DNA of 64,000 nucleotides, from NCBI GenBank assembly GCA_961205875.1, contig OY540813.1:29173001-29237000 (forward strand). Reading direction: 5' to 3'. This DNA is from Sialis fuliginosa. Its lineage: Eukaryota > Arthropoda > Insecta > Megaloptera > Sialidae. The notes beneath the pieces are model-generated. The model was not told the DNA's origin, ran no database searches, and saw nothing but the letters and a program-made list of their open reading frames with translations. A program made the translations under genes and the position numbers. Shown piece after piece: positions 8,771 through 62,497 of the stretch; position 1 is the stretch's first letter; each line of letters starts with the position of its first letter.

Positions 8771-10711
8771 TTATAATTCTTTTTCACAAATAAAGTTTGT
8801 TGCTTCTAGACAAGATACATCATCCAAGCCTCCTCTTCTATGTAGAGATCCGCAATTTTCTATCCCATTATTGTTGTCTGGTTGCTTATCAAACCAATCA
8901 AAATATTTTGTATTTTGATTTTCACCTGAAACATGAAAACTGTATTAAATAATAATAAAAAAACTATAGTAGCTACCCTATATTAAAGAACATCATATGA
9001 TTTCTCCAGGGAGATCAGATCAGGCAACATTCACGAGGCTAAATTTATTATAAAATATATTTATTTACTTAATAACGCATTTTCCTCGTTACTGTAAACC
9101 ATAACTGGTTTAAAATTATTTATTTAAAATTTTTAAAGCTTGAAATAAAAATAAAATTAGAAGTTTTTGGCGATTTTTGAGGGAGCAAATGTGTTACCAA
9201 TTTTTTAAAATTTAATCCCGGCGAGTGGGGTATCAAATGAAAGCTGACAATCCAATAAATTAAAAATATGGCACTTCTTACGTTCTCCTCGTTAGTTCTC
9301 AATCTTTTAATTTTCTTACCTAAAATATTCATGAAAACACCTTCATTAGCAATATCATTAAAACCAACCAATAGAGTATCGAATAATTTAACAGCTTGTT
9401 TTGGATGAGATTTGTATAAAGATAACAGAAGATTAGCTTCTTCGTGAGTATCAACAACAGCTAAATGTGCTCCTTCTAGCTCACAGATGTATTTCGCGCT
9501 ATGCCAGGTAGCAGGATGTATGTGATGCTTGTAAAACCCAAATCTAGGATAAAAAGTGTAGTCATCACGGAATTTCGGAATTATTTTTATTTCAGTCACG
9601 TTTTTTTCATTGTCTATAACATTAAAATAAAAATATATAGATATATTGAATATTATGGATATAAAATTTATAAAAATATACCGGATGTTTTCTTAAAAAC
9701 TTTTTAGTGGATTATTTCCAAAATTATTTAGAAAAAATGTTTCAGGCAAAAGTTTCATGGTATCGAGGAGGCTAAATATTGACATTATGGGTTGACTTTA
9801 GAAAGGTCATTTTGATGGGTTTTCAAGTTCGATTTTTCTTTTTCAAATGTAAACCTATATTTTTTGTTGCAGATTCGTAATTTAAGAGATAAACTAAACA
9901 ACTTTTGTTTGAAACTTTTTTTCTGAAAATATCCAATTTTTATGATAAGGAGCAAACTAAAGAGAAATTTCTAGGTTTTCCATAAAAGTTCTTATTGTTA
10001 GATATATGTAAAGATTCTCTTAATTTATTTAATTTGTAATTCATTTTTTTTTAAATTTCAGAATTTTTACTTTATAAAAAAGTTGCATAAAAAAATTAAC
10101 AATAAATTTGAAAAGTAATTCTCCAAGAATCCTTGCTTAACTCTAAATACTTTTTTAATTTTGTGATTTTTCTTAAAAGTTTATAGTTTTCGAATAAAAA
10201 ATTATGGAAAATCCAGAAATTTCTCTTTGCTTTCCTACATATCATAAAAAATTGACATTTTCAGAAAAAATGTTTCAAACAAAAAATATAGGTTTAGATT
10301 TTTTAGAAAAACTTGAACCTGAAAATCCATCAAAGTGACTTTTCTAAGCCCCCCCCCCCCAATATGTCAATATTTATCCCCCTCAAAACCATGAAACTTT
10401 TGTCTAAAACATTTTTTCTAAAAATTCGTTATTTTGGTAATAATTCGCTGGAAAGTCTTAAAAAAACATATTTTTTATTGTACTTTAAAATTGAATAAAT
10501 TGAAATATTCTTTTAGAAACATACCTGATTCTTGTTCATTGCTTGCACATTTCTCACTTTTATCTGTATATGTTTCAGTTAAAATCTACAATTAATAAAT
10601 TATTAAGAGGATTATATAGATTTTTTTAGAAAATACACAACTTACTATTTGTCGTGACTGAACTTTGTATAAAAACAAAATTATAAATACACTGTTTATT
10701 TTAAAAATCAT
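8771..10711 (-). CDS. C-type lectin A, secreted, single CRD (4 exons)
   Basis: Predicted exons, 5' to 3' on the minus strand: 10711-10646, 10585-10525, 9613-9320, 8925-8771. They sum to 576 bases, 191 residues. Exon 1 encodes a signal peptide (MIFKINSVFIILFLY). The lectin domain starts at KFRDDYTFYP, with YICELEGAHLAV (first cysteine) and LLVGFND in exon 3. The last exon has KQPDNNN, ENCG, LDDVSC and NFICEKEL, giving all four conserved CRD cysteines. QPD suggests galactose-type binding by family rule; the usual WND is LDD. By family it would be a hemolymph pattern-recognition lectin. A hAT insertion lies 124 bases upstream of the start and a MITE abuts the stop. Splice sites match GT/AG and phases (0,1,1) match genes B-G. 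Confidence 0.87.
9170..9290. repeat. fragment of a dispersed repeat in the last intron of gene A
   Basis: The sequence around GGCGAGTGGGGTATCAAATG with GAAAGCTGACA matches the middle of the repeat at 47125-47760 (GGCCAGTGGGATATTTAATG), in the same orientation. It is a short internal piece with no ends. Confidence 0.55.
9686..10468. mobile_element. foldback element in intron 3 of gene A
   Basis: Long imperfect inverted arms: the left arm begins near TTTTCTTAAAAACTTTTTAG and contains AATGTTTCAGGCAAAAGTTT; the mirrored right arm ends near 10468. Inner mirrored blocks include AAACCTATATTTTTTG. The arms differ at many positions and one includes a C-run (10351-10360), so it is older than the palindromes further right. 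No coding. Confidence 0.7.
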
Positions 10712-10834
10712 TATGGGAGAGTATAACATGAACTCTAGATTCTTCTGTACTCGAATAATATAATCAAAATTTGATGCTTTAAATAAATAAAAACGGAAGT
10801 ACTTCTTTTATCTACAGTCTAGCTGCTTTATTAA

Positions 10835-11517
10835 TAGAGTTGAGCATTTTAGTTCATGACAGAGAGCGCTCCCTATAGTTCAGTGGTCTTTAATGAACTA
10901 GTTCGTTCTTCTAGTTCTTTTAGTTCATATAACTTTTTTCCGGACTATACGATGACAATTTATTGATTTAGATATACATATTGGATTGTTGGATTTTTAA
11001 TGTATAATTAAATTTTTTAATTAGTAATTTTGTATTACTATTTTTTTCATCAAACAATAGAAATGTAAACTGCTGTAATTTTTAATTGGTTATTAATTTA
11101 TAGACAAGATCGATTGTTTTAAAAGTATATATATTTCAAATAATCTTTTTTTTTAATCGAACCCTGATATTAATTTTTTGATTTTGAAATATTTTCAATG
11201 ATACATTATTTATTGTATTGTAATTTAAGCAATATATTTCAATTTCATTAAAATCTGTGATATTCCTTTTTGTTGATTGTCATAAAATAATATAAAAATC
11301 ACGTGCTTTTGACAGACATATTGCATTCTTTTGTACAAAAAAATTCAATTTAATATATCTTTAGTAAAATAAATTCAAAATGGGTAATAAAGTATTGAAA
11401 ACGTAAATTATTAAACATAAAAATCGTACAATCTCATTTTTAGAACAGTGTATTGAAGTGTATTGTGTATTGGGAACTATTGAACTAACTAGTTCGTTCG
11501 TGAACTACACAAGTCTA
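10835..11517. mobile_element. hAT-type non-autonomous element upstream of gene A
   Basis: A perfect 8-bp target duplication TTTATTAA lies at 10827-10834 and 11518-11525. The inverted ends read TAGAGTTGAGCA and TAGACTTGTGTA. Subterminal GAACTAGTTCG motifs occur at both ends in opposite orientation. It is 683 bp long without a transposase. Its right-hand neighbour on the minus strand is gene A, whose start codon lies 124 bases away, so it sits in or next to the promoter. Confidence 0.85.
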
Positions 11518-11708
11518 TTTATTAATACATTTTTATGTTTAAAAAATAATTGTGTTCATTTAACTGTGAATTCGTGATCAAAACCAAAACATGTAAAAAA
11601 GTCAATGGAATATTTATTCAGAATCAAAATTTACAAATTATTAAAATATACCATAAATTTAAATGGATCGTACAAAATGAAATTTCATGGTACAAATAAA
11701 CAAAAAAA

Positions 11709-14700
11709 TTACTGGTAATTTATTTTACAAATGAAAGAATTGGGTTCTCCACATGGATAATCATTTAATAATAAGTCTTCAAAGTCCATTGATCCACAAT
11801 TTTCAACTCCACCTGGATTTCCAGGAATCCATTTGTTGTAACCACTGTCTTTAACTAAACCGCCTATAAAATTGAGATTATTATAGTATTATAATTATTT
11901 TATTCATACATACTAGGTGGGAAAAAATAGTGTACTGGCATTATATCTGTTTGTTTGTTTCATGTAGTTTACGAGTAGTTTAGTAATATGCAGGCCCGGA
12001 TTTACCATGCAGGCAGAGTAAGCAGCTGCCTAGGGCGGCAAGAATTGAAGGGCGGCAAATTTTGGTGGAAACTTTGAAAACTTGTTAATTCGTGGGAATT
12101 GAATTTGATTTTGATTCCATTATCGATAAGTTTGCCATCCGAAAATCGAGACGTAAAAATTTCAACCCATAAGCAATAATTTCTCTATACATTTAACTCA
12201 AGCATGGCAAAAAAAAGGTCTTTAGTTTTTATGTTTCCTAATGTAACTATAAAAATTTATAAAATTTGAAACTGACGCAACCAAAAAAAAATAGATCCTG
12301 AGTTTTATATTTTGACATCTATGACTTAAACTATTAGTTTCGAGGGGGGGGGGGGGGGCAATTTTCGCAACTGCCTAGGGGCGGCAAATTTCTAAATCCG
12401 GGCCTGGTAATATGTCTTTATATATCGTTCATAATAACGTCGGTATTTGTAGAATAATAATAATAGGTATAATTTATTATTTATTTCATTTTTGTTTTCA
12501 GATAGAAAACTATAAAACACAATGGGGATTAAATTTCTTATTTTAACAATCTTATTTAAAACTAAAATGTGAGTGTTTTGATATAAAATGCAAACACAAT
12601 ATTAGAGTGTGTAAAGGTTTAAACAAAATTGAAGTTTCTTTTTTAATTTTGTAGATATTACCATTGATTTAGTTCGAGTACATTAGTTCACTTTCTCTTC
12701 GAATACTTAAAAAGTAAATTACATAACCTATTTTGAGTATTATAATTTCAAACCATTTAGTAGTGAAGTGTACAAAAATAGTAGAGGGAAATTAGCATTT
12801 TGAAGTGATGCATTCGGGAAGTTGGATTTTCTCTTTATATGTTCGAAGATTAGTTAAAAATCAAAAATTTAGAAAAATCGGCCATGTACGTCCCGAGAAA
12901 ATTGTATAATTGTGCATTTTTGATACATTTCGAGTGTATCGCTACACTGTTTTTGAAATATCTCCAGTTCTATAGGTCGTAGGAAAATTAAAAAAAATAT
13001 TAAAATACTTATAAGTTAATAGACTATGAAACTGCATAGGTAGCGCTACTTTTCAAACGCATCATAACCTCAAAAATAAAAAAAATGTCGAAAAACTTTT
13101 TTTATCACTAATTATGCAATAATTAACATAAGTTTTTCGACATTTTTTTTACTTTGAGGTTATGAAAGTAACGCTACCTATGCATTTCTATAGTCTATTA
13201 ACTTAATTTTCCTACGACCTATAGAAGATATAGATAGAGATATTTCAAAAACAGTGTAGCGATACACTCGAAATGTATCAAAAATGCACAATTATACAAT
13301 TTTCTCGGGACGCACATGGCCGATTTTTCTAAATTTTGGTTTTTCAACTCATAAAGAGAAAATCAAAAAAGCCAACTTCCCGAATGCATGACTTCAAAAT
13401 GCTAATTTCCCTCTACTATTTTTGTACACTTCACTACTAAATGGTTTGAAATTATAGTACTCAATATAGGTTATGTAATTTACTTTTTAAGAGTATTCAG
13501 AAGTTTCTGTAATTTATGTATAATTCTAGAATATTACATATGTCACTTAACAAAAAAAAACATTTTGTTAATGCACTTGATATAATTTATAATAGAGAAA
13601 ACTATTACTAAAATATTGAATTACAAAGGAAATATTTTCAACTGTTGTCAAATATCAATAAGAGTTAAGGAAATTTAAAATTACATAGAATAGAAGAAAG
13701 TATAGAAGATTGCCATTATATTATATGTTAACTTATAGTAAGTCTTCAAAGTAATATATTGGCGTGTTTAATTAAACCAAAAATATAAAACAGCAACACA
13801 TATTGATTTTAAAATACGAACTGATTTCAAAATACCGTATCGGTGTTAACGAAACCTTTTAATAACTAATAGACACTTGAGATTTTAATTTAATAACTAT
13901 AAAATATATATACCTAATACAGTGACATATCGATCTTCTGTGTGAATATCACTGAAACCAATTAAAAACTGACGACTTATTTTAACAGACGGAGCTGGAT
14001 AAGCTTTGAAAATTCTACTAAGTAACCGCGCTTCTTCTGCTGAGGTTGGGAAAGCCAAATATGCACCTTCCTTTCTACAAACGTTCACTGCATCCATCCA
14101 TAATGTTGGAACTCTGTGATATTTGTAATAACCAAATCCTGGATATAACTCATAATCATATGAAATTGCTTTTTGATTTGTATGATCACATTGACAGCGT
14201 TCTATAATGAAAATTAATTAAAATAAATATACCGCATGGAAATTATACATAATACAAATATTATTATTTGAAATGGAGATAAGTCTAAAATTATCGATTA
14301 TTTATTTATTATTAATTAACTTTTGCCTTCTAGATCCTTGTTGAACTTTTTAGACAACTTTTATTATTTTTTAGTTTTGCTACCAAAATAGTTGACTGGT
14401 GAAGTACTTTTCAGAAAGTCAGATTTTCATTTTTTGTTAATAAATTGAAAAATATTTTTGGACTTCAGCTTATTTTTACTTATGTTTATTATCCAAGTTT
14501 TTTTTTTCAAATTTTTTTCTTGGTGTAATGGTGCGGTATACTATCGTAATTCTGTCGGTTAGGTAAAAATGCCTTTTTTATTTTTATTTTTTTATCAAAC
14601 TTTATTATAGTTAATGTATAAATTCTGAAAAGACGTTTTTTATTTTTAATTGCAGAATATTAATGAAAATCGTCATTCAAATTAATTGCAAAATTCGTTT

Positions 14701-15266
14701 TTCTATACGTGTGGATGCGACATAACTTTCCATGAATTTGATATTTTTACGGAAAAATCGTATTTTTTTTCATAAAACATGTTAATTTCATACAAGGATT
14801 CCTATAGGCTCTTATCGAAAATGAATTTTTCGATTTGAATGTCAATTTTTAAGATTTTCCTACAATAAAAATGAAATATTTTTTTCAAAATTCTGAATGT
14901 TTGTACGTTTGATAATAATCATATCGATAAAAAAATACTCTACCATGAACTATTAACAGGGCAAGTATGAATAAAATCCGTGGAGATGAGGTACACAGTA
15001 TTTGGCAGAATCACACGTATAATAAATTAAATATATTTAAAATTATTTTTTACCTGCGAATTTAATTGTCAAATTCAATCCATCTTCTGTTTCTTCTTTT
15101 TTGATACTGAATTTTGGTTGGTTAAATGAAATAGGCTATTAAAAATTTGTTGTTAAATTTACAGTTGTCATAGAAATATTAAAGCGTACCTTACCTCATT
15201 ACATTGTAAAGACTCGATACTTTTCCAGAATATTGTAAGAAAAAACAACACAGTTATGTACCTCAT
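11709..15266 (-). CDS. C-type lectin B, secreted, divergent sugar site (4 exons)
   Basis: Predicted exons: 15266-15195, 15135-15054, 14201-13914, 11863-11709; 597 bases, 198 residues. Exon 1 is a signal peptide (MRYITVLFFLTIFWKS). Exon 2 adds a short linker. The lectin domain carries YELYPGFGYYKYH, VCRKEGAYLAF, FLIGFSD and, in the last exon, ENCG, LNDYPC and SFICK, so the four CRD cysteines are kept. The place of QPD reads GNPG, which breaks the usual calcium/sugar motif. The N-terminal linker has a CQCD pair absent from A, C, D and E. It is the most divergent intact member, perhaps binding a different ligand or acting without calcium; that is inference. The 2.05-kb last intron holds a hAT MITE and a nested foldback. 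Confidence 0.86.
11991..12406. mobile_element. hAT MITE with perfect 8-bp target duplication
   Basis: The ends CAGGCCCGGATTTA and TAAATCCGGGCCTG are perfect 14-bp inverted repeats, flanked by GTAATATG at 11983-11990 and 12407-12414. A subterminal CTGCCTAGGGCGGCA motif is repeated inverted near the right end. It is 416 bp, with a G-run near 12344. It lies in the last intron of lectin B. The clean duplication points to a fairly recent hAT-catalysed insertion. Confidence 0.93.
12694..13504. repeat. outer palindrome split by a foldback insertion
   Basis: About 85 bases on each side (12694-12778 and 13419-13504) are near-perfect reverse complements, including CCATTTAGTAGTGAAGTGTA on the left. Removing the element between them restores a palindrome whose exact centre is a TA. 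The outer sequence is non-coding and I do not recognise its family. Confidence 0.75.
12781..13416. mobile_element. GTAGAGGG foldback element, short copy
   Basis: A 636-bp element with ends GTAGAGGGAAATTAGCATTT and its complement, with TA on both sides (12779-12780, 13417-13418). The arms stay complementary for about 300 bases each (GGTCGTAGGAAAATTA, CTGCATAGGTAGCG). A longer relative lies at 51631-53049 and a fragment at 41566-41815. The TA duplication suggests a Tc1/mariner-type enzyme moves it. No coding. Confidence 0.88.
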
Positions 15267-17382: not shown

Positions 17383-19566
17383 TTATAGTTCTTTCTCACA
17401 CATAAAATTAGCTGGTACGTGACAAGGGAAATCGTTAAGGATTCCAATTTTATGTAGAGACCCACAGTTTTCATTACCTCCGGCATTATCAGGTTGCCCT
17501 TTACCCCATTTTGTAAATCCAGTATCTTGCAACGATCCACCTTAAATAATTAATTTTATACATTTAATATACTTATTTTCTTGAAATAATATTAGTAAAA
17601 GTACACGAAGAAAAATGAAAATGAAAAAAATGTACATTCCGTATTGCAATAATTTACAGTCTTATTGTATTTTTAAATAAAGTTACTATTTTTATTTAAG
17701 ATTTGTAATTTTTTCTAAAATTTGAGTCCCAGTTTTCTTCTTGCACTCACAATTAGGAATTTCTACATTTTACAGTTTTAATATTAAAAATATTTTTCCG
17801 TTTTAAGGAATATTAAATAATATAACAAGTTATTGATTTAAAATTCTTCATAAAAATACAGCTACAGACTTGTGACGTCACTAACGGTTTCATTAAAATG
17901 ATGGTTGAATCGTATCAAACATAGGATATTTATTTTTGTTTTCGCACTGTTACAAAATTAATTTAAAAAAATATATTTTAACTTTTAATTTTATCCGCGG
18001 AAATATCATTTGGTACAAAAGATTTTATGTTTAAAAAAAAATTACCAATAACTAATTATTAATAATTTATTAACGCTTAGAAAAAATTACAAACAACTAA
18101 AGAAATTCCATTAAAACATAGAACGTCATTTTTTGAGAAGGGTTCAATCTATATGGGTTATAAAATATTTTACAAACTCCTTAATTTCATGTGGAAAAAT
18201 ATTTGTTATTCATTATTTTATTGCGTGGCCAAAAAAAATCCTAAAAATGAGCTTTTTTTGGAAGTCCCAACTGGGTCTGCCCCCTTAATGTAAATGACAA
18301 ATTGTATTCTTGAATCAATTAGCGAAAAAAATGTTAATTTTAAACTTCAAAAGAGGTATATTTTGTATATTTTTATACATATAAAATAATTGTATACCTA
18401 ATACCTACCTAAAACTGTTACAAATTGTCCTTCAGCGTGTCTGTCATGAAATCCTAATAATACATAATCGGGATGCTGAACACTGGACCTAGGATACGAA
18501 TTAAATATCATGTTGATTAAGTCTGCTTCTGATTGAGAATTGATTACAGCTAGGTGGGCGCCTTCTAATTCACAGATGTATTTTGCGTTGACCCATAGTG
18601 CTTGATCTATGTGATATTTGTAATAACCATATCCAGGATATAGCGTGTAGTCATCACGGAATTTTGGCACTTTTTTCAAACCATTATTTACTTCAATGTC
18701 TTTATTTCCTAAGGAAACAAACGTGTAATAAACTTTTGTAAATGGCATTGGGAAATATGTATGGTAGAAAATATTTGAATTGACAATTACTATTTCCGAG
18801 TATTATTTTTAGTGTTATACCGTACCGGAATTGGAAAAAGGAATATATGGAATCAACACTGTGTCGATGTTTCTGTCACAACCTTCAGTTTATTGAACCG
18901 CTTGAATTAGAAAGCTGAGAATTGGCGTAATTATGGTAAATAATGGACCAATAATAGACCTGAGTTAGAATTTTGTTTTTGTTTTTGGTTTTATTATTAT
19001 TAAAATCACCATTTAACAAATCTTTAGAAAAGAATCGTAAAAATATTTTTTCTCATATCTCCGAAAGTAACAGTGAGATTTGGAAAAAATTTAATATGTA
19101 TAAAGATGCCTGGATCAAAAGAAAATTTAAGAACACTCACTGCACTTACGTAACACAAAAATAATTAAAAATTATTTAATTATAATACATTTTGAGCTAT
19201 ATGTGTTCTAAGATAAGAATTATTAAATATTATTATAGTGGCTCTTAACTTCGTTAGTACTTTTAAAAAGTTTGAAATCTTTAAAGTAAAAATATACGGT
19301 TTGTGACACTAGTGCTCGAGACTGGACAATTACCTTCTATATTAATAGAAAATATGGTCATTCCACTTTGTGGGTCGTTCTGATTGAAAGAATCATTTGA
19401 TTGTGTATTGATCTAAAATAGAAAAGATATACATATATATATATAGTTATTATAAATTAGAAGAATTAAATATAATGTTAATACTTACGTATAAAATTGC
19501 ATTTGCAAAACATAAAGATAATTTTAAATTGAACAGAAACAGCGATAAAAATACATTCGACTTCAT
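17383..19566 (-). CDS. C-type lectin C, secreted, QPD type (4 exons)
   Basis: Predicted exons: 19566-19489, 19412-19334, 18708-18409, 17540-17383; 615 bases, 204 residues. Exon 1 is a signal peptide (MKSNVFLSLFLFNLKLSLCF). Exon 2 has QSNDSFNQNDPQSG. The CRD opens KFRDDYTLYPGYGYYKYH, then YICELEGAHLAVINS, VLLGFHD and EGQFVTVLG. The last exon has GFTKWGKGQPDNAGG, ENCGSLH, LNDFPC and NFMCEKEL. All four CRD cysteines and the QPD motif are present, so calcium-dependent galactose-type binding is the family expectation. Genes D and E share the exon lengths and most motifs, which marks recent tandem duplication. An AATAAA signal on the minus strand lies about 45 bases past the stop. At 2.2 kb it is among the least inflated genes. 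Confidence 0.9.
18824..19330. repeat. dispersed repeat, copy in intron 2 of gene C
   Basis: Blocks such as CACTGTGTCGATGTTTCTGT, GAAAGCTGAGAATTGGCGTA and ACCAATAATAGACC recur in order at 47125-47760, as does the far end (CACTAGTGCTCGAGACTGG against CACTAGTACGCGAGGCTCG). No transposase or tRNA-like head is visible. Family unknown. Confidence 0.6.
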
Positions 19567-20562: not shown

Positions 20563-20570
20563 GATTTGCG

Positions 20571-24815: not shown

Positions 24816-26557
24816 TTAGATTTCTTTTTCACATATAAAATTAGCTGGTATGCTGCAGGGGAAATCATTAAGAACTCCACTGCTATGCAACGACCCGCAG
24901 TTTTCAGTAGTTCCAGAATCAGGTTGACCTTTACCCCATTTTGTAAATCCAGTATCTTGCAACGATCCACCTTAAATAATAAAAATAAAACTATAAAAAT
25001 ATACTCGAATCCAATTTCTTTAGATTGGGCTAATCTTTGAAATATTTTTATAAATATATGACTTTACCGAAAATAAAAATTGATCAATTAAAAAATAATC
25101 GAGAAAATCTATGTTTAATAACCAAATATTACATATAGTTGAATAATAAATACAAAAATGTTTTAATATATTCTAGTATTTTTCTGTTCAATTACTCTAG
25201 AAAACTTGTATCGTCATAAATTCTTTTTGATTCTTTTTCCTTATTTATTTTCAAAGATAGATGACAAAATCGTAATAAAATGATTACATATATACCTAAT
25301 ACAGTTATAAATTGGCCCTCTGCGTGTCTGTCATGAAAACCCAACAATACATATTCAGGATGCTGAACAATGGACCTAGGATACGAATTGAAAATCATGT
25401 TGATTAAGTCTGCTTCTGATTGAGAATTGATCACAGCTAAATGTGCGCCCTCAAGTTCACAGATGTATTTCGCGTTGACCCATAGTGCTTGATCTACGTG
25501 ATATTTGTAAAAACCGTTTCCAGGATACAGCGTGTAGTCATCACGGAATTTTGAAACTTTCTGCAAACCATTTTTTACTTTGATGTCTTTGTTTCCTAAG
25601 AAAACAAAATTTGAAATACTCTGAATAATTTAATGCAGCAATGTTTGTAGGTAAATAACTCGTATATTTTTGAACGACATATTAACATCATAACAATTAT
25701 GCATCCTTAAAGAGCACACACTAAAAAAAGAATATAAAAATATAAGTTATTGGCACTAGTCATGGAGCCTTTAAGAGCAAGGTATATTGTTTTTTGGGAT
25801 TGATGGGCTTCTTTTCTTTTATTCTCGTGAACTTATGTTACTAATAAAACAAGTACGCAAATATAGTTAGTTTTTTTAAATTATAGCCATTTATTTTGTT
25901 TATGTTTTTTCTCCAGTAATGGAAAAAGTAAAATCAGTAATGGGTATACCCAGTGATAGACACTTGCTAATGATTACAAAATGTTATAAAATATGTAACA
26001 ATGTAAAGTAGATGCTATGGTAATATAATAATAAATAAATATATTACACTAATAATTAGTTTAAATGTCCACCATTTTGACATCTATTGGTCGATTGTCA
26101 TCAAATTATGCTGTAAGACAGTTAAATTATAACAATTAGTTTAAATGTCCACCATTTTGACACTCATCATCAAAATACGCTATTTTACAGTTAAGTATAT
26201 AGATTATGATTCAGTAATGACTAATTTAGTACATTTAATTAAAAAAAGAATCCAACACTGGAGTATGATCGAAGACTGATGCCAGTACCTTACATATCCA
26301 TGTGTAATGTGTAGGTTTAATTATACCTTCTATATTGATTGAGATTATGTTTACTCCATTTTGTGGTTCATTTTGATTGAATGAATTATTCGATTCTGTA
26401 TTGATCTAAAATACATATAACATTTAACGTAACAATTCAGTTGTCTACTTAAATTATAATTTTATTTTTTAATACTTACGTATACAACTGTATTTGCAAA
26501 ACAAATAGATAAATTGAGATTAAACAGAAGAAACGATAATAATACATTTAACTTCAT
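24816..26557 (-). CDS. C-type lectin D, secreted, QPD type (4 exons)
   Basis: Predicted exons: 26557-26480, 26405-26327, 25595-25296, 24970-24816; 612 bases, 203 residues. Exon 1 is a signal peptide (MKLNVLLSFLLFNLNLSICF). Exon 2 has ESNNSFNQNEPQNG. The CRD has KFRDDYTLYPGNGFYKYH, YICELEGAHLAVINS, VLLGFHDRHAEG and, in the last exon, GFTKWGKGQPDSGTTENCG, LNDFPC and NFICEKEI. All four cysteines and QPD are kept. It is the closest relative of gene C, with identical lengths for exons 1-3. A TATA motif lies about 55 bases before the start, and the first exon plus promoter is duplicated in tandem just upstream. An AATAAA lies about 45 bases past the stop. It is the most compact gene (1.7 kb). Confidence 0.9.
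26051..26200 (+). repeat. short direct duplication in intron 2 of gene D
   Basis: TAGTTTAAATGTCCACCATT occurs at about 26057 and again at about 26138, followed by TTGACA in both copies and a similar TCATCAAA.TA.GCT stretch. Confidence 0.65.
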
Positions 26558-26610
26558 GTTGTTCTGTTGTCCGTACAATGACGAATACGAAGGTTGACGT
26601 TGTTGACGAT

Positions 26611-26617
26611 ATTTATA
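26611..26617 (-). promoter_or_regulatory. TATA box of gene D
   Basis: On the minus strand this reads TATAAAT, 54 bases before the predicted start codon, leaving room for a transcription start about 25-30 bases downstream. The same box is copied at about 26895 in the upstream duplicate. Confidence 0.5.
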
Positions 26618-26766
26618 TTGTAACTTTGTAACGTAGGAAAATTATTAATTATTTTGTTAATATTTTTGTATGTGTTAAACAAAGGCAACTCTACCACTAA
26701 AGTTCGAAGCTTTATGTGCCGTCTCCCTCTGGGTTATCCGCATATATTTTGATTTTGTTTCCTGTT

Positions 26767-27232
26767 TACAACTGTATTTGCAAAACAAATAGATAAATTG
26801 AGATAGAACGAAAGGAAAGATACTAATACATTTAACTTCATGTTGTTCTGTTGTCGGTACAATGACGAATACGAAGATTGACGTTGTTGACGATATTTAT
26901 ATTGTAACTTTGTAACGTAGGAAAATTATTAATTATTTTGTTAATATTTTTGTATGTGTTAAACAAAGGCAACTCTACCACTAAAGTTCGAAGCTTTATG
27001 TGCCGTCTCCCTCTGGGTTATCCGCATATATTTTGATTTTGTATTGTATTGTATTTATATTGTTTTGATTTTGTATTTATATTGTAACGTAGGAAAATTA
27101 TTAATTATTTTGTAAAAATGTGTTAAACAGAGGCAACTCTAGCTTATCTATCGCTAAAGTTCGAAACTTCATGTGCCGTCTCCATCTGAGTTATCCGCAT
27201 ATATTTTGATCTTGTCTGCTGTTTAGCGACAT
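26767..27232 (-). pseudogene. tandem duplicate of gene D exon 1 and promoter
   Basis: The 284-bp block 26483-26766 (signal-peptide exon, TATA region, upstream sequence) is repeated at 26767-27050 with few differences. A third, partial copy of the upstream part lies at about 27080-27232. The duplicated exon still encodes a start and signal peptide (MKLNVLVSFLSFYLNLSICF), with ATG at 26841-26839. Its original donor site lies just outside the duplicated block, and the new join reads TTGTAAACAGG. It could serve as an alternative promoter and first exon or be inert. Confidence 0.75.
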
Positions 27233-46300: not shown

Positions 46301-49300
46301 TGTGCATTCTCAAAAATATGTTCTCAAACAATCACAATAAAGTAGGTTAACATTTTAGTAAGCATTTCGATTTTATTAAGTTACCATATTTCTTATTTTA
46401 AGCCCAAAATCTTAAAAGTGGCCAATCATTATCAGTGGCCAATAATTGTACCTTTTCCCCTACATTTTATAATATCTTTTAAAAATTATTGGAGAAAAAT
46501 ATTAAAAATAATTTATTGAACCTTTTAAAAATATATGGTTACCGGTTATCCATGAAAAGGTTCGGATTCAGATTCAGGTTCTTTGACTTTGAAATATAGC
46601 GGTTCGGTTCGGGTTCAGGTTAATGAAAAATACTAGTTTTTTCGGGTTTACGGTTCGGGTTCGGGTTCAGGTTCAAGTACCTGGTTTCAATTACAGGTAT
46701 TCCTCGACTTACGACGGTTCGCACTTACTTTTCTTCAGAACTTTTTAAATTCCTCATTAACTTCATTCTACAATAATCATCAAATACAAATCATAAAATA
46801 AATCAAGTTCAACAATTGAATCAACAATCAGCAGTTATTTGTCAACAATAGAACTTTTTAACTTAAATAACATGATAATATGTATAGATATTTTTATTAT
46901 AATTTTGAATAAAGATTGAACTATGAATTTAATTTTTGTATCTAATAATCTTTTTGTTGTTCTTTGTTTTTTTTTTTTAAATGAAACTCGACTTACGACC
47001 GATGTCTAGGAAACGAGCTCGGTCGTAAATCGAGGAATACCTGTAATATCCTTTCTAAGTGTCAATCGGCTGTTTTAAAACCATGTCAACTTAATCACTA
47101 TTAATAAACGGATGATTTCCTAGTGTTCTGTACTGAAATCGGAAAAATGAACACTGTGTCTGTCTGTCTGTTACAGCCTTCTAGTTGATGAATCGTTTAT
47201 CCTAGAAAGCTGAGATTTGGCAGAATTATAGTAAATGATAGAACAATAATAGACCCTTATTATAGAAATAAAACTTTAGTTTTTCGCATTTTTTGAGAGA
47301 GGTAAATCAGTTTACCAAAAAAAATATTTTTAATCAATCTCGGCCAGTGGGATATTTAATGAAAGCTGATAGTTCAAGAAATTTAAAAATGTTAACGTTT
47401 TGTGATTATCAAAATCTTTGTTTAGCAAATTTAAAAAAATCGTAACTATTTCGACCCTCTACTAATATTTCCGAATGTTATAATGAGAAAAATCAGAAAA
47501 AATGGAAATATACCATTATAGTGATGCTGAAATCAAATGATAATTATCAGTACCTACTAATAGATTTTTAGAAAAATAGTTTAAAGTAATTTATTTTAAC
47601 ACATTTGGAGCCATCTGTTTTCTAAAAGACGAACTATAAAAAATAACTATTAAAACATACCTATTTTAACTTTGCTAAAATAAAAATAAATTAATATAAT
47701 CAAATAAATTGAAAAACTATACGGTATGGAACACTAGTACGCGAGGCTCGACGCGTAATTGGCAATTTTTTACTTTATGTAATTCATTATATTCATGATT
47801 AATAAATAGTGGTTTTAAAAAATCGTGATTAATGTTGTTGCTTCCTTGCAATATCGAAGATACGAGAAGCTTTGTGATCGTTTTAAAATGAGACAAAAAA
47901 ATTGTTCTCCGATTTTAAAATATTAAATTGGTCTTTCCGTTTCAGGTCAAGACAAACAATTCTCGTTCCGTATCTGTCTGTCTGTCTGTTCCCTGAATCC
48001 TTGTCACACGCATAACTCGTGAACTACTGAATCGGTGTTAATGAAACTTGGTTGGATGGTTGGGTCTGGCTTGAGGACGGTCCTATTTCAAAATCATCAA
48101 AAACGTGTGTAAGGGGGATGGGTTAACTTCCTAAAATTTTTATATTTTCAAGATATCTCAAGAACGTTACATGTTATGTGAAAATTTAAAAAGAATCATT
48201 TTTGTAGAGCATTCAATTTCTTATAATATACCAATATACGTTTACAATGTTTGTTGTAAAATATTCCTTTACAAAGATTTATCTCAATTTGCTTTAAAAA
48301 ATTGTAATTTGTTTTTTCAAATTGATATTGACATATTAAATAAAAGATTTAGATTGAAATTGTCAGAAAAATTTCGAACTAATATTTTTTAGTAAAATTG
48401 TATAAAAATTAAAAGATTAACCAATGCCGGGCAATTTATCTGAACACTATCAGTTTTTATTTAAATTGTTTGATAATAATGAATTTAGCACGAGGAAGCA
48501 CGGAGCATTTATTTGGGAGATGTTTTTTTATACAAGATCCAACCGAAGGTCAGTCTTTTATTGACAATTGTAACTTCTGTAACTCAATACTTACATACTT
48601 TTTAATGAAATATTTCTATATTGGATACCTACTATACCTATATAAAATATTAAATCAATTAGTTATCTGATATGTCTTTATTACCTAGTATACTGACGTA
48701 TTTCCCTTCAACTTCTAGGTCATTAAATCCTAGAAGAATATAATCTGGATGGGGAACGGGTGACTTTGGGTGTGAATTAAATATCTTTACAAGAAGTTCA
48801 GCTTCTGCAGGAGAATTCACGACAACTAAATGTGAACCTTCTGTTTCACAAATATTTTTTGCGTTTGCCCAAATAGCAGGCTGGTGATATTTATAAAATC
48901 CTTTTCCGGGGTAGTGAATGTAGTCTTCACGGAACTTGGGAGGTTTGTAATCGCATTTACCATTTTCTGTAAGATAACTTAAAATCAGTGCAAATGGCTC
49001 ATTAACCATAAAATCAGTTTTCAAATTAAATAAGTCTAGTATTTATTATAAATACAGTCGGGACTCGTTTATTTTAAGCCTTCTGAATCGTTTTGAATCG
49101 AGGATGTCGCGTTTATTCGAAGTCGAGAGGGGCTTCTACAAAGTTATGTATAGATCCTTGACCAATCAGCGTTGGCGCGGGAATTGACGTCACCACGAAG
49201 ATGTATTCAAATGTTATAAATGTAAAATGTATAATAGAATATCAATTACAAAAAATCTTTTATTTATTCTTGTCTTCGTATTTTTTGATATTTTAACAAC

Positions 49301-52300
49301 ATATACAATCAAAGAAGTACAAATTCGACATTGCAAAATCATGAAAAAGCTATTACAGATAATTTTGTCTATTTGAGAAGTGTCATTTTTACTATAAGTT
49401 GGCAATACGTTCTGTGATAAATTTCTATAAATATTAAATACCTTGGTATTTAATATTTATCGTTAATAGTGAAATAATTTTACTTTACTTTTAATTTCGA
49501 ATATGGCAAAATATGAGCAAGGTGACGAGTGACGACGGTGATATGTGTAAATTATAATATGTATGTATTCTTTCTGACCTAACATCAAATCTATAGATAT
49601 GATTTTCGTTGCGTTCGTAGCATGCAATGAATATCAAGAAAATTAAAATCTTTTGAAAAATATTGTACAGTCAATGAGATGAATACAAATGCTCTAATTC
49701 ATTCTACAAAAAATTTCAAAAATATGTTCGTTTACGCCATGACTCGAGAATGGTGGGAGGTGAAGAAGGAGAAAAAATTACGAATAAACGAAACTCGGCA
49801 TTTCAGATAAACGAGAGAATAAACGAGTCCCGACTGTATTTCAATTTTATCGATGTTTTAAGATAAGTTTGGCATCTAAATAGATAATAATTGTTGTATG
49901 TTAAATATGTATCTATGTATAGTAATAAAATGCCTTACCCACAACCGTTATTATAAAAGTTGTAATGTTTCCAGAAACCTTTTGTTCTACATCGATATTA
50001 TGCTTGGCCTCATCATGATGAGAATTATGAACGGTTATCTGTGAACAATTTAGCTATATTAATGAAGAAGAGTACATGAAATACATTTTTTCTTAATTCA
50101 AGAAATGTTGAAAACCATACGTATCAATGTAGAAATCATAAACGTATTTTAATTTACAGACGCTGAAATTATAATACCATAAAATACAAAACAAAAAATT
50201 AACGTATAGTCTGTTTCATTTAAGATTGCAGTGGTGGGTGGGGATTAGATGGTACGATTCACACAGGCATTATTCTCGCACTGGGTTAGCCCACAGAATA
50301 AACATAGTAAGAAGCGATACTCCATGTTAAAAAAACTGGAAATCCTTTTTACATACACTCTAAAATTTGTAAGAAATAAAACTCACCTTTGTATTATGAA
50401 TATTATTTTTCTAATATCCTAATGTCAATAATATAACACACATAACCCCCCCGAAATATTCAGTGTTCTAAAAAAAACCTGTTTTGCAAAATCACTTTAA
50501 AATACCTTAAAAAAAATTTACTCAATGTAATCCCCCCCCCACATTTTTTTTTCTAACTACGATACTGGAATCTGACCAACTGACCATGGACTTCGAAAAT
50601 ACGCCACTCAGAAGAGAAAAATAAAAAAGTTAATTTTAAGAAAAAAATAAAATCGACTTAAAAAAACTAAAAACACTGAGAAATATACCTAATAATTAAA
50701 TTTAACAGTTTTTTAAATCGGTGCCAAGCCAATAAAAAACTTTTTAATAAACAAAAAAGAAAACCGACTTCAAAAACTTTTAAATATAATTATTAGGTAT
50801 GCCTACATTTCAGAGTTTCTGGTTTTTTAAGTATGTTTTATTTTTGTTTATTTTTTGTTTTGAAAGATAAATCTGCCAACTAATTAGGATCTTCTAAATA
50901 AGGTACCTCTAGTTTTTATTTTTGATTCTAAAAACATTGTATTTTATTTTTTAAATCGTAGAATCTTCTTAGCGTTGTGTTATATTCATTATTTTATTAT
51001 AATATAATTTTTTTTTTAATTATCCGATGAGGGCCGCATCAAAGATACTCGCGGGCCGCGGGTTGGACAAGCTTGGTATACACTATACAGATCACACAAA
51101 CACATCATGAATCTGAGTTTTATTTAACCCCACTACCACAAATAAAACGATGCAACCTTAAATTTGGAACGTATCCACGCCAATTCCTGTACTGTGCCTC
51201 CCGGCATAGCCACACCCATTTTTATTTTTTCAGTCTCGTCTCATCTATGAGTCCAAGACAAAACCGGTAAAAATGTTGACGCGAGATTATCGGTTATACC
51301 CTACAAATGCAAGAAAGCGAATGTGGTTATTGACGTCAAGTTAGTAAATGCTTAAACTGACGATCAATATTTGTTAGGACGTTAATATACATTGACACAT
51401 TGTGGCAAATATTATCTCGATTGATAATGTGTATTTTGAATTATTGACAATAACATTCCTCGTCAATTTGGACAAGTAATTAATATTTAAGTAATATATT
51501 ATGTTTTACAGTTATAATATTATATACAAATATATAAATATACAGAACGACGTTATTTTATGGTAATCTTTAGTGATTTCTCCGTTATATCAGGACCTCG
51601 TAAATGTTTTCAGCCTTGATTGTTCCAATAGTAGAGGGAATAGAGACATAAAAAGAGATGAATAGTGATGCATTTGGGAAGTTGGAAATTTTTTGGATTT
51701 TATCTTTATATGTTCAAAGATGAGTTGAAAATCAAAAATTTGGAAAAATCGGCCATGTGCGTCCCGAGAAAGTTGCATAATTGTGCATTTTTGATACATT
51801 TCGAGTGTATCGCTACACAGTTTTTGAAATATCTCCTGTTCTATAGGTCGTAGGAAAATAATTTTTTTTTTAAATACTTATAACTTAATAGACTATAGAA
51901 CTGCATAGGTAGCGTTACTATTCAAACGTATCATAACCTTAAAATAAAGAAATTGTCGAAAAACTTTTTTTATCACTAATAATTCAATAATTAACGTAAT
52001 AATGAAGGGATTTTTACGAAAATAAGATATAATATGCATTTTTATGTTACAAATAAATGATAAAATTTTCAAAAATAAAATTTGAATTTTACACCCACAA
52101 TCGGCTATTTTTGAAAAAAAATGGAAAAGCTCGCCATTTAATTAGAAAACGGCGTAGGGTCAATTTTATTTTTTTTAATAGTAGACTTTTTTATGTACCT
52201 ACTTTCTTGTGAACGTATGCCAAAATCTGTTAAATAAATTAAAATATTGTAACTGATGTATAAACTAATGCTCGATCAGGGCCACGTGCGCGTAATACTA

Positions 52301-54553
52301 GTTTATACCACATTTTAATAGTCTTATTATAGATGTTTTGTATTTATTTCTAATATTGCATATTTTTTATGTTATTGCAAATGACTTTTTTTTATTATGT
52401 GAGTGTAATTCTACAGGAATTGCATTTAAAAAAATTTTATTCGCAGTATTGGCTAAACATTTTTTAATTATAAAAAATATATATTTTAACTTATTTAACA
52501 GATTTTGGTATATGTTCACAAGAAAGTACATAAAAAAGTCTACTATTAAAAAAAAAAAAATTACCCTACGCCGTTTTCTCATTAAATGTCGAGCTTTTCC
52601 ATTTTTTTCAAAAATAGCCGATGGTGGGTGTAAAAATCAAATTTTATTTTTGAAAATTTGATCATGTATTTGTAACATAAAAATACATATTTACTCTGAT
52701 TTTCGTAAAAATCTCTTCATTATTACGTTAATTATTACATTATTAGTTTTTCGACAATTTTTTATTTTTGAGGTTATGATGCGTTTGAAAAGTAACGCTA
52801 CCTATGCAGTCCTATAGTCTTAACTTATAAGTATTTAAAAAAAATTTATTTTCCTAAGACCTATAAAAAACAGTGTAGCGATACACTCGAAATGTATCAA
52901 AAATGCACAATTATGCAATTTTCTCGGGACGCACATGGCCAATTTTTCCAAATTTTTGATTTTCAACTCATCTTCGAACATATAAAGAGAAAATCCAAAA
53001 AAATCCAACTTCCTGAATGCATCACTTCAAAATGCTAATTTCCCTCTACTACAAGGTAATTTCATTCCTCTGCAAGTAATCCTAGTTAGGTGTCAGGTAG
53101 AATTACATAGTTAAATATATTCTGACTTATCAATCAATGCCAATAAATAATTTAAAAAGCCATATTTTTAGAATAACTAATCTGACAATTTGAATTTAAT
53201 TGCATTTGTTTCCAAGGCAACATAAATTAATAGACGTATTTATTAGTATTTAAAATTAACATTTTGAGGGTGGTTTTCACCCTTTCAATGGCTAATAAAT
53301 AGTGAAATACATGTTTCATTATATGTATTGTAGAATACTAAAAATAAGTTTCAAGTAAATTCGATCAAAAAAAAAATTTTTACCTACACAAATATTTACA
53401 CCCCTTTTTACCCCAGTAAGGGATGAATTTCGAAAAATCCTTTCTTTCTGATCATATTCACGTCAAGACGCTTCGATTGACACCCCAATGAAGTTAATAA
53501 CATTTCTTATTTGCGAGATTTCGTGCAGGATAAAAATAACACACACTATGCACGTACGTACATACACACTAGGGTGTTTTAAATTTTTTTTTTTTCGGTT
53601 CCGCAGGCCTATGTTTTAGCTTTGGATCAAAAATTAACTGTCCCAAAATTTCAGACTCATAGATCAATCCTGTGGACGGCGCAAACCGAGTCCTTTTTCC
53701 ATTTGAAACATGGGAAAAATTACTTTTTTACTTATGCGTGAATATCTCGTTGAAAAAATTTTTTTTTTAAACTTCTCAGGAGAATATTTTGTAGAGATGT
53801 AAGTGCTCAATTCATAAATCCAATAAATTTTAAGAAATGTTTGTTTAAAAACTATCATAAAAATTGGATTTTACTTTTTATGATAATGTTTAAGCGAACA
53901 TATCTTTAAAAATATTCGATCTATGAATTGAGCACTTGGAGTTTTTTTTGTAAAAAATTTAATTCTCTATGATATGCTGCTGTAAGAAATTAAAATAAAT
54001 AAATTTTTCAACGAGATATTCACGCATAAGTAAAAAGTAATTTTTCCCATGTTAATGAAATGGGAAAAAGATTCGGTTTGCGCCGTCCACAGGTTTGATC
54101 TATGAGTCTGAAATTTTGGGACAATTCTTTTGAGCCAAAGCTAAAACATAATCCTGCGGAACCGAAAAAAAAACACCCTAATACACACACACACACACAC
54201 ATACACATATACACATACATCTTTCTGAAATTAGTGTAAATATACTATAGTGACCTTGAAACATAAAAATATGTTGACATTTTTGATTTCGATTTTCGGA
54301 CAAGAACTTCCTGGTAGGAAATTAAAAACATATATTTAAATATAATAAATTGAATTATTATAACACAATATTTAATATCAAAACTATGATTTTAAAATGA
54401 TATACATACAGTTTTCTGCCATTTTCCACAATTATTTCTTTCTGCATCTATCGATATCTTGAAATGTGTATCAGTCTCTTTAACAACGTTTCGGCATATT
54501 TCTGCGTTGGCAATAGCAAATACAGTTAAAGTAAAGCACAGCGCAGTCTTCAT
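43333..54553 (-). CDS. C-type lectin G, secreted, TE-inflated gene (4 exons)
   Basis: Predicted exons: 54553-54410, 50038-49939, 48966-48685, 43493-43333; 687 bases, 228 residues. Exon 1 encodes a signal peptide (MKTALCFTLTVFAIANAE), then ICRNVVKETDT and NNCGKWQK as in gene F. Exon 2 has NIDVEQKVSGNITTF. The CRD has KFREDYIHYPGKGFYKYH, ICETEGSHLVVVNS, ILLGFND and EGKYVSILG. The last exon has KWGQGQPDDAGGNEDCG, LNDFPC and NFICEKEVH. QPD and the four CRD cysteines are kept. The exons join in frame across introns of 5.2, 1.0 and 4.4 kb that hold at least six mobile elements. TATA and TCAGTT initiator motifs lie upstream at fitting spacing. Confidence 0.86.
44280..46460 (-). mobile_element. pogo-like transposon, 2.2 kb, nested
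   Basis: The inverted ends GGGGAAAAGGTA are flanked by TA (44278-44279, 46461-46462); ATTGGCCA motifs recur many times near both ends as likely transposase-binding sites. The minus strand holds a decayed pogo-type transposase. It sits inside the hAT element at 43949-46683, so it arrived later. Confidence 0.88.
44613..45764 (-). pseudogene. decayed pogo-like transposase
   Basis: From ATG at 45764 the minus strand reads EMKALNEIQTSSVKLSLHMV, then SKIYGVPHSTLQFKL, then after a break KTYLTTQEKDILVAWIIKSA, which is the psq plus CENP-B helix-turn-helix layout of pogo-type transposases. Further down are KFCEIVGTNDIQNLKTLNEK and a C-terminal MFICHKCYREND, likely a small zinc-binding tail. Several stops and frameshifts separate the pieces, and a full catalytic triad is not readable. 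Confidence 0.75.
46694..47043. mobile_element. pogo-type MITE, 350 bp
   Basis: The ends CAGGTATTCCTCGACTTACG and their complement (CGTAAATCGAGGAATACCTG) are flanked by TA (46692-46693, 47044-47045). It begins three bases after the hAT element's duplication. Non-coding. Confidence 0.9.
47125..47760. repeat. dispersed repeat, longest copy in window
   Basis: Shares ordered blocks with 18824-19330 and 9170-9290. It begins near GTACTGAAATCGGAAAAATG and ends near CACTAGTACGCGAGGCTCG. No coding capacity. In the last intron of gene G. Confidence 0.6.
49055..49836. mobile_element. pogo/Tigger-like MITE in intron 2 of gene G
   Basis: The ends CAGTCGGGACTCGTTTATT and AATAAACGAGTCCCGACTG are perfect inverted repeats between TA dinucleotides (49053-49054, 49837-49838). 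Its interior carries 49150-49351, which is shared inverted with 29621-29790 and may be a captured or nested piece. No transposase. Confidence 0.88.
51631..53049. mobile_element. GTAGAGGG foldback element, long copy
   Basis: 1419 bp between TA dinucleotides (51629-51630, 53050-53051). The arms are about 600 bases each and largely complementary, past AAACGGCGTAGGGT and TTAACAGATTTTGG. A roughly 250-bp loop around 52236-52490 is unique. The 12781-13416 copy lacks the inner part. Frames at 52338-52661 and its complement are arm sequence, not genes. In intron 1 of gene G. Confidence 0.86.
53570..54180. mobile_element. TAGGGTG foldback MITE, copy 3
   Basis: Same arms as copies 1 and 2. ATACACAC is directly repeated at 53562-53569 and 54181-54188, an 8-bp target duplication. 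It lies in intron 1 of gene G, followed by an AC-rich microsatellite (54181-54220). Confidence 0.9.
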
Positions 54554-56790: not shown

Positions 56791-56794
56791 CGTT

Positions 56795-60379: not shown

Positions 60380-60385
60380 TATATA

Positions 60386-61902
60386 TACAGGGTGGGGCAA
60401 TAGTGTGTGGAAGTTCGATAGCTCGTAGACCATAAAAGATAAAAAAATCTTTCTAATGCAGATGTAAACTATGAGTAAATGCACATACATAGAAATTATT
60501 TTCAAATATACAGGGTGCTACAAAAAAGTGTGGCATGCTTAAGGTAATTTTTTTTAAATGGAATGCCCCGAATATTTTTGCATATTTAACACTTCTCTTG
60601 GGATGTTTATTCATATCGAAAATATTAGCCCCATCTGATGTCCGGTTTAACCGTAATAGTATTTTTTTCAAAAAAATTGATGTTTACATTACTCCACTTA
60701 AAAATTCACCACTTCCGCGTCAGCATCTTTGAAGACGAAATTAAATATGGACCTTATTGTAGGAGGTTGGTGGGTGCTTTTGTTAAAATATCTTAGAGCC
60801 GCCATGTACAGGGTGTTTAAAATTAATTTTCAAATTTTGAGAACTTCAAAGTTATTTTTCTCAACTATTTCAAATGGAACACCCTATATATTTTTTAACG
60901 ATGTTATGTAGAATTACATTTCAAACATTTTTTGTTGTACATCCTTATGGTTATTTGTAACCATTTTTGATTTATTGAGCAAAAAGTACAAAAATCAACA
61001 ATATTTACTAAAAAAATGAATTTTTTTTTAAATAAAATAAAACACCATGTAAAGGAAGTTCATGTTGCCCATTAAAACAGCATGAATTTTTTTCAGTTAG
61101 CAAACAAATGCTTTATTATTTTATCAAACACAAATAACCAAAATAATTTACAACCATATAAATTCACTAATACGCAGTGTGAAACCGCGACAGAAACATA
61201 AAATGCTGTTTTTATGGGCAACATGAACACTCTGTACATGTTGTTTTATTTTATTTGAAAAAAAAATCATTTTTTTAAGTAAATATTGTTGAATTTTGTT
61301 CTTTTTACTCAATAAATCAAAAATGGTAAGAAATAACCATAAAGATGTATAAACAAAAAATGTTCGTTATGTAATTTTACATAACATCGTTAAAAAATAT
61401 ATAGGGTGTTCCATTTGAAATAGTTGAGAAAAATAACTTTGAAGTTCTCAAAATTTGAAAATTAATTTTGAACAGCCTGTACATGGTGGCTCTAAGATAT
61501 TTTAACAAAAGCACCCACCAACCTCCTACAATAAGGTCCATATTTAATTTCGTCTTTAAAGATGCTGACGCGGAAGTGGTGAATTTTTAAGTGGAGTAAT
61601 GTAAACATCAATTTTTTTGAAAAAAATACTATTACGTCTAAACCGGACATCAGATGGGGCTAATATTTTTGATATGAATAAACATCCCAAGAGAAGTGTT
61701 AAATATCCAAAAATATTCGGGGCATTCCATTTAAAAAAAATTACCTTAAGCGTGCCACACTTTTTTGTAGCACCCTGTATATTTGAAAATAATTTCTATG
61801 TATGCGCATTTACCCACAGTTTACATCTGTATTAGAAAGATTTTTTTATCTGTTATGGTCTATGAGTTATCGAACTTCCACACACTATTGCCCCACCCTG
61901 TA
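60386..61902. mobile_element. ACAGGGTG palindrome, unit 2
   Basis: Same structure, length and module order as unit 1, separated from it by six bases (TATATA). It is more diverged between arms and from unit 1 at many single positions, so neither unit is a fresh copy of the other. Beyond it, 61903-62345 shows nothing recognisable. Confidence 0.88.
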
Positions 61903-62345
61903 TATCTTGTCAGGTCTTAATGACCGGTATATAAGTTAAAAAATGTTAAAAAATAATAATCTTTTTTCAATAAAACCTTGTAGGTACAGGCACTGAATGT
62001 GTTAATAAGCATAATATTATATATTCTACATAAGTTTATTTACTATATATTATATTCACCTATCCTCTACATTTCATTGATTGAATTTTAATTCTTTAAT
62101 TGATGTATATATTTTTTATTTCTGGATGAATGATATATAGTATGATATAATTACTACTAACAATAAGTGTAAATACACATCTAAAATTATATTAAAATAT
62201 ATTTTATTATATTTAGGTTTTGTCCAAGACTGTTTCGGTGTGATCTTATTAGACTCCTGATGAGGTTTTCTTGTGAAGTCAAAATACGAATATTTTATTG
62301 TGGTTAAAGTAAATTTTATTTTTTATTATACAAGTATTTATGATA

Positions 62346-62497
62346 TTAAGGTTCGATTACTTCCAATTCACACATGGCAAGAGAAATCGTTTAGATCTTG
62401 GGTGTACATATACATAGCACCACAGTTTTCCGAACCTCCGTTATCTGGTTGTCCATAGGGCGCCAATTTGTATAGCCACTGGCGTTCACCGAACCAC
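62346..62497 (-). pseudogene. C-type lectin H, damaged last exon
   Basis: A normal acceptor (TAG before GTGGTTCGG) and the family opening GGSVNASGYTNWRP are readable, followed in a shifted frame by GQPDNGGSENCG, then LNDFSCH, then a stop where VPANFI should follow, and CELEVIEP in another frame. One single-base loss after WRP and a small deletion before the last cysteine would account for this. Upstream exons of this gene are not visible in the remaining 1.5 kb and would lie beyond the window. It keeps the QPD motif. The damage could also be a sequencing error. Confidence 0.78.

What the first reader, a model, noticed from the sequence alone, without database searches (positions are those of the whole stretch)
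8771..62497. Head-to-tail array of eight C-type lectin loci with one exon plan
Seven intact genes and one damaged exon lie on one strand over 54 kb. Each intact gene has four coding exons with phases 0, 1, 1, and every exon sum keeps frame (576, 597, 615, 612, 606, 729 and 687 bases). This is seen directly. Tandem expansion of a secreted immune-type lectin is the inference.
Basis: partly seen in the sequence, partly recalled or inferred. Interest (0 to 1): 0.7.

Follow-up and report, generated by a model that had tools for sequence, protein, structure and literature searches.

The report
Alderfly C-type lectin gene array
The window holds seven intact genes and one broken gene piece for small, apparently secreted sugar-binding proteins (C-type lectins), part of a larger array in what is very probably an alderfly genome; such arrays are a known kind of insect gene family, though this family is large and has a fast-changing side branch near chromosome ends.

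Summary
All seven proteins pass Pfam's Lectin_C cut-off, one domain each. The eighth locus is a last exon with a frame break and early stop, the only unpaired last exon in its cluster. The array runs on: 31 third exons over 216 kb, 27 minus and 4 plus, 30 paired with a last exon; genome-wide 107 of 134 pair. Assembly figures match the alderfly Sialis fuliginosa. 'Tandem expansion' is only partly right: the window's genes are not one clade. They are under purifying selection (omega 0.16). Immune function is inferred; expression could not be tested. Beyond the question: a related branch of 27 copies, 24 within 2.5 Mb of a chromosome end (other members: 14 of 107), has gene-wide omega 2.2 in 18 intact copies, and its exons diverge two to four times faster than its own intron and 3' flank. 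That branch, not the array, is the surprising part.

The parts
8771..10729 (-). Gene 1: exons 10711(or 10729)-10646, 10585-10525, 9613-9320, 8925-8771; 191 aa; QPD, E, LDD at the calcium/sugar site
11709..15266 (-). Gene 2: exons 15266-15195, 15135-15054, 14201-13914, 11863-11709; 198 aa; the QPD triplet is missing; most divergent of the seven
17383..19566 (-). Gene 3: exons 19566-19489, 19412-19334, 18708-18409, 17540-17383; 204 aa; QPD, E, LND
24816..26557 (-). Gene 4: exons 26557-26480, 26405-26327, 25595-25296, 24970-24816; 203 aa; QPD, E, LND; closest to gene 3 (dN 0.092, dS 0.535)
26480..27042 (-). Tandem copy (279 bp, 96.4%) of gene 4's first exon and upstream DNA; the outer copy ends before its splice donor
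28186..32630 (-). Gene 5: exons 32630-32553, 32476-32398, 31381-31091, 28343-28186; 201 aa; QPD, E, LND
36927..40270 (-). Gene 6: exons 40270-40121, 39187-39094, 38466-38155, 37099-36927; 242 aa; QPD kept, E and N of the site lost (QNC, LDD)
43333..54553 (-). Gene 7: exons 54553-54410, 50038-49939, 48966-48685, 43493-43333; 228 aa; QPD, E, LND; introns of 4371, 972 and 5191 bp
62368..62497 (-). Damaged, orphan last exon: frame break, then an early stop; its 3' part is closest (66.7% over 27 residues) to last exons of two genes just right of the window (L040, L041)

Best explanation
The window is a stretch of a roughly 31-gene cluster of single-domain, apparently secreted C-type lectins (the kind called CTL-S in insects) on chromosome 5 of what is very probably the alderfly Sialis fuliginosa. 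Each gene has a leader exon, a short linker exon and two exons that together encode one carbohydrate-recognition domain, so the protein should fold as a C-type lectin domain and, where the QPD, E and ND residues are kept, bind calcium and a sugar. Shown here: gene structures, domain membership, cluster size, purifying selection, one broken copy. Inferred: that the leader directs secretion into haemolymph; that the copies arose by repeated local duplication and some longer-range moves; that the proteins recognise microbial or other surface sugars in humoral defence, with copies that lost part of the calcium site doing something else.
For: Exon plan and coding lengths in 7 of 7 genes; Pfam Lectin_C over cut-off in 7 of 7; gene 3's best solved relatives are C-type lectin domains of aggrecan and CLEC10A, E 8.6e-11 and 2.2e-10 (only gene 3 was searched); full QPD/E/ND set kept in genes 3, 4, 5 and 7, i.e. 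4 of 7 (sequences; the role of these residues is recalled from mannose-binding protein and galactose-type lectins). 30 of 31 third exons in the cluster pair with a last exon downstream on the same strand within 8 kb. Codon-model omega 0.160 for the seven genes, lnL -4081.1 against -4248.7 at omega 1; 14 third exons of the cluster (six of them from the window) give 0.116. Insect C-type lectins and cockroach lipopolysaccharide-binding proteins are described in print as opsonins and immune recognisers (PMC7934958, passages seen; PMC8235521, passages seen).
Against: No transcript evidence was available, so junctions and tissue are untested. No NF-kappaB-like site in 600 bp upstream of any of the seven starts. 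Three of seven genes have lost part of the sugar/calcium site. Leader peptides were judged by eye, not by a predictor. The window genes are not one local clade.
Confidence: 0.62

Rival explanations
1. The array encodes secreted lectins with a non-immune job, for example in gut lining, egg coat, seminal fluid or larval secretions, and is kept for that reason.
For: Sequence alone does not show tissue or ligand; no NF-kappaB-like promoter sites were seen; three of seven genes have an altered sugar site (sequences).
Against: The closest described insect classes (CTL-S, lipopolysaccharide-binding proteins) are discussed as immune in the passages seen.
Confidence: 0.25
2. Most of the array is decaying: tandem copies that are no longer used.
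For: One orphan last exon with a frame break and early stop; one third exon of the cluster outside the window holds a stop (L034); one third exon of the cluster (29057377, plus) has no last exon found.
Against: 7 of 7 window genes are open with 21 of 21 GT-AG introns, omega 0.16.
Confidence: 0.03
3. The array is an assembly artefact: alleles or haplotypes laid side by side.
For: Tandem families are prone to this.
Against: The closest window pair differs at dS 0.54 and the closest of the cluster pairs I tested at dS 0.24, far above allelic difference; long-read assembly with quality value 63.7 and 0.5% duplicated BUSCOs (PMC11549539, passages seen).
Confidence: 0.02

Closest known systems
Insect CTL-S (single-domain secreted C-type lectins)
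   Same: One Lectin_C domain (7 of 7) after a leader-like first exon.
   Different: Copy number: 107 paired loci here, against 2 to 37 in the species listed in PMC8235521 (Aedes aegypti 37, Drosophila 30, Tribolium 10; passages seen). My count is of exon pairs, including some broken ones, not annotated genes, so the two are not counted alike.
Cockroach haemolymph lipopolysaccharide-binding proteins (LPSBP)
   Same: Insect C-type lectins of a large family; reported as significantly expanded in cockroaches (PMC7934958, passages seen). The run FRDDYT.YPG.GYYKYH looks like theirs, but that is recalled and came from no call.
   Different: No LPSBP sequence was held, so kinship was not tested; ligand unknown.
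Immulectins (dual-domain lectins, almost all of Lepidoptera)
   Same: Same domain family.
   Different: Two domains per protein (recalled); here one in 7 of 7.
Expanded C-type lectin repertoires of bivalves
   Same: Very large families of the same domain (PMC10140915, title and start of abstract only).
   Different: Different lineage; no sequence comparison made.

Membership tests
C-type lectin domain (Pfam PF00059) | Profile score over the curated cut-off | tested here: met
   7 of 7 window proteins, 46.6 to 63.8 bits against 22.6
C-type lectin domain (Pfam PF00059) | Four conserved cysteines of the short-form domain | tested here: met
   Seen in the alignment of the seven proteins; the pairing itself is recalled
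Calcium-dependent sugar binding, QPD type | QPD (or EPN), E and ND residues of calcium site 2 | tested here: inconclusive
   All kept in genes 3, 4, 5, 7; gene 1 has LDD; gene 6 lost E and N; gene 2 lost QPD (sequences). Binding itself not testable
Insect CTL-S | One domain, no second domain | tested here: met
   One stretch per protein in 7 of 7
Insect CTL-S | Signal peptide, secreted | tested here: inconclusive
   Hydrophobic leader in exon 1 by eye; no predictor run
Immulectin | Two tandem lectin domains | tested here: not met
   One domain per protein in 7 of 7
Lipopolysaccharide-binding protein | Binds bacterial lipopolysaccharide; sequence kinship to the Periplaneta protein | not testable with these tools
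   No such sequence was at hand; none fetched
Tandem array of one origin | Array members form one clade against loci elsewhere | tested here: not met
   Window label needs at least 3 changes on starred branches in trees of 51 and 58 third exons; both have under 90 columns and many open forks

The most novel reading that the evidence does not exclude
From the lineage that also holds genes 3-6 of the window, a separate lectin branch has been scattered to the ends of at least eight chromosomes and is being driven to diversify across its recognition domain: the fold is kept, the QPD sugar site is gone, and the exons change two to four times faster than the intron between them and the 3' flank, a pattern that I recall from fast-evolving venom and recognition families. 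If so, the alderfly has a mostly subtelomeric, diversifying repertoire of lectin-fold proteins beside a conserved one.
Probability: 0.65. Interest if true: 0.65.

Novelty: new member of a known kind. Interest (0 to 1): 0.42.

Why it matters
The array adds a large, chromosome-level case of lectin expansion in an alderfly; a search for 'Sialis' with 'lectin' found 3 papers in the held library, none of them on alderfly lectins by title and abstract start. The wider family gives a natural experiment in one genome: other sets of the same exon with omega 0.12-0.18 against one branch with omega near 2. One of the conserved sets, at 1.3 Mb on chromosome 5, also lies near a chromosome end, so position alone does not explain the difference, and ligand or tissue can be tested as the driver.

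Tried and rejected
Rejected: that the dispersed copies are carried by a transposon. The copies first looked as if they began sharply about 30-40 bp before exon 3 with unrelated DNA upstream, but upstream exons of the same plan were then found: exon 1 in 5 and exon 2 in 10 of the 20 loci searched, at E below 0.05 (the 20 loci are 14 copies and 6 upstream pieces, and several lack enough upstream DNA). So these are whole genes with diverged or inserted introns. Rejected: that the damaged exon belongs to the next gene upstream; that gene has its own last exon. Led nowhere: NF-kappaB and GATA site counts upstream of the seven starts; two paper searches for insect lectin expansions (0 papers each). 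My first model of gene 7 was wrong and was replaced. I first called all the comparison clusters 'interior'; the one at 1.3 Mb is not, and the text was mended.

Limits. The third- and last-exon tables are lower bounds and not gene annotations. Of 27 dispersed copies, 21 went into the alignment (6 split, partial or more distant ones were left out) and 18 into the codon model (L045, L049 and L063 dropped for stops or frame breaks). One omega per data set was fitted with IQ-TREE; no site models, no recombination test. One search's pair counts use 10 of the 14 copies then held, those with both exons parsed. The omega sets overlap: six of the 14 third exons in the cluster set are window genes. The set called C5 1.3 Mb holds 9 third exons, 7 from that cluster, one from chromosome 11 and one from 15.97 Mb; the 6-Mb set has 8 of that cluster's 11 third exons. 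Some third-exon ends were extended a few codons past the match and may include intron bases.
Full report
What was checked. The seven genes were rebuilt from the sequence; exon coordinates, splice sites and frames are. My first attempt put a wrong first exon on the seventh gene; the right one, 54553-54410, was found by similarity to the sixth gene's first exon and lies 4.4 kb upstream of exon 2. The eighth locus is a last exon at 62497-62368 with its parts in two frames and an early stop. Against gene 3's third exon the other six match at E 7e-61 to 9e-24, so chance is not an issue.

What it is. Each of the seven proteins has one Lectin_C domain over Pfam's cut-off (gene 3, the other six), and gene 3's nearest solved relatives are C-type lectin domains. 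Exon 1 encodes a hydrophobic leader (by eye), exon 2 a short linker, exons 3 and 4 the two halves of the domain. The calcium and sugar residues QPD, E and ND are complete in genes 3, 4, 5 and 7; gene 1 has D for N, gene 6 lacks E and N, gene 2 lacks QPD (sequences; the meaning of these residues is recalled).

Where it is. The window is 29173001-29237000 of contig 5 in a genome of 392,097,322 bases in 20 contigs. The mitochondrial contig is 15,590 bases with the tRNA order I-Q-M and W-C-Y around ND2, which I recall as ancestral for insects. A search for these figures found one genome note with 392.1 Mb span and a 15.59-kb mitochondrion, that of the alderfly Sialis fuliginosa. I therefore name the species as very probable, not certain.

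How large it is. A search with the third exon gave 134 matches, one with the last exon 117. Pairing them by strand, order and a distance under 8 kb gives 107 loci. The cluster around the window holds 31 third and 31 last exons from 29.038 to 29.256 Mb, with 27 third exons on the minus and 4 on the plus strand, and 30 pairs; the one unpaired last exon is the damaged one in the window. Other clusters lie on the same chromosome at 1.31, 6.07-6.10 and 7.15-7.18 Mb (7, 11 and 10 third exons). The window's seven genes are thus about a quarter of the cluster, near its right-hand end, with three more to the right.

How it arose. A tree of 51 third exons (87 columns, 19 of 48 branches starred) and one of 58 that adds the 6- and 7-Mb clusters and keeps 3 of the 14 dispersed rows (86 columns, 26 of 55 starred, bootstrap not fully settled) both need at least three changes for the window genes. 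Genes 3 and 4 are sisters (100/95); gene 1 is sister to a gene about 19 kb outside the window (100/99). In the larger tree gene 2 groups with the 6- and 7-Mb clusters (98/85) and genes 3-6 with loci at 1.3 Mb, on chromosome 11 and with the dispersed branch (96/82); the smaller tree placed gene 2 and genes 3-6 otherwise, so these deeper joins are tentative. By BLAST gene 2 matches genes at 6.1 and 7.2 Mb at 53-55% and its best in the array at 51%. Local duplication explains neighbours, not the whole array.

How it evolves. Pairwise dN/dS among the seven genes is 0.11 to 0.36 in the 12 of 21 pairs where dS could be estimated, and 0.09 to 0.19 in six close pairs of third exons outside the dispersed branch. 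A codon model gives omega 0.160 for the seven genes and 0.116 for 14 third exons of the cluster; three other sets give 0.168 (9 exons), 0.170 (10) and 0.179 (8). These genes are maintained.

A side branch behaves differently. A DNA search with one dispersed copy gave 27 copies after pieces of one copy were joined and tail-only and distant matches dropped. 24 of 27 lie within 2.5 Mb of a chromosome end, against 18% expected and against 14 of the 107 other third exons; grouped at 100 kb it is 18 of 21 groups against 6 of 33. In the 51-row tree 14 of 14 sampled copies form one clade (100/100). In 21 aligned copies the mean difference is 0.063 in intron 3 and 0.075 in the 3' flank, but 0.159 in exon 3 and 0.239 in exon 4, rising to 0.34 in the stretch that in other lectins forms the ligand loop (the loop's role is recalled). 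In 18 intact copies omega is 2.17 (2 delta lnL 44.3, p 3e-11); 2.07 for exon 3 alone (p 3e-6), where the alignment is nearly without gaps, and 2.07 for exon 4 (p 3e-4). Three of 21 copies are broken. QPD is absent in 18 of 18 intact copies, yet the two that I scanned pass the Lectin_C cut-off.

What speaks against a simple reading of that branch. Synonymous distances (0.144 in exon 3, 0.203 in exon 4; 10 copies, 45 pairs) are also two to three times the intron distance (0.066). Selection on the protein alone does not predict this; counting bias at codons with several changes, local mutation, or gene conversion that carries divergent exons into similar flanks could contribute. The conserved cluster at 1.3 Mb is also near a chromosome end, so position alone is not the cause. 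No expression evidence exists here.

Compared with what is known. Single-domain secreted lectins (CTL-S) are a known insect class; the numbers in PMC8235521 run from 2 to 37 per species (passages). Lipopolysaccharide-binding proteins are said to be significantly expanded in cockroaches (PMC7934958, passages). So the array is a new, large member of a known kind. Searches that paired lectins with subtelomeric positions (7 papers), with accelerated evolution and introns (15 of 169 listed) and Sialis with lectin (3 papers) showed no paper on this branch by title and abstract start; I opened none of those, and most subscription papers are not held.

Function. Most likely humoral sugar recognition in defence, inferred from the class and not tested. 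I give this about 0.6, other secreted roles about 0.25.

Noticed in passing
L042, L043, L045-L047, L049-L064 (contigs C4, C5, C7, C8, C9, C11, C13, C14): Lectin branch mostly near chromosome ends with gene-wide omega 2.17 (18 intact copies) and exons diverging two to four times faster than intron 3 and the 3' flank (21 copies); QPD site lost; same exon plan where upstream DNA was held.
   Followed up: partly
L043, L045-L047, L049, L050, L052, L054-L056: 10 of the 14 dispersed copies held with upstream DNA carry a second, shorter copy of the start of exon 3 (about 50-85 bp, 75-88%) some 670-1340 bp upstream, as if an exon had been partly duplicated before the branch spread.
   Followed up: no
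window 1-4495: Penelope-like retroelement: reverse transcriptase frame 1780-3276 (Pfam RVT_1), a following frame that looks like a GIY-YIG nuclease by eye (no Pfam match), 430-bp direct repeat and 506-bp inverted repeat at 99.8%, so probably a recent insertion.
   Followed up: partly
window 20569-24674: Foldback-like element between genes 3 and 4: 1.49-kb inverted arms at 98.6%, each with a 15-bp tandem array and 408-bp tandem repeats.
   Followed up: no
window 34477-35972: Inverted pair of 697-bp arms at 98.9% identity about 100 bp apart.
   Followed up: no
window 58854-61909: Roughly 700-1500 bp repeats in direct and inverted order at 90-97%.
   Followed up: no
window 62648-63529: 21/42-bp tandem repeats in two inverted blocks create two long open frames on the plus strand that are probably not genes.
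   Followed up: no
window 26480-27042: Gene 4's first exon and upstream DNA are duplicated in tandem; the outer copy has lost its donor and would add a short upstream open frame.
   Followed up: partly
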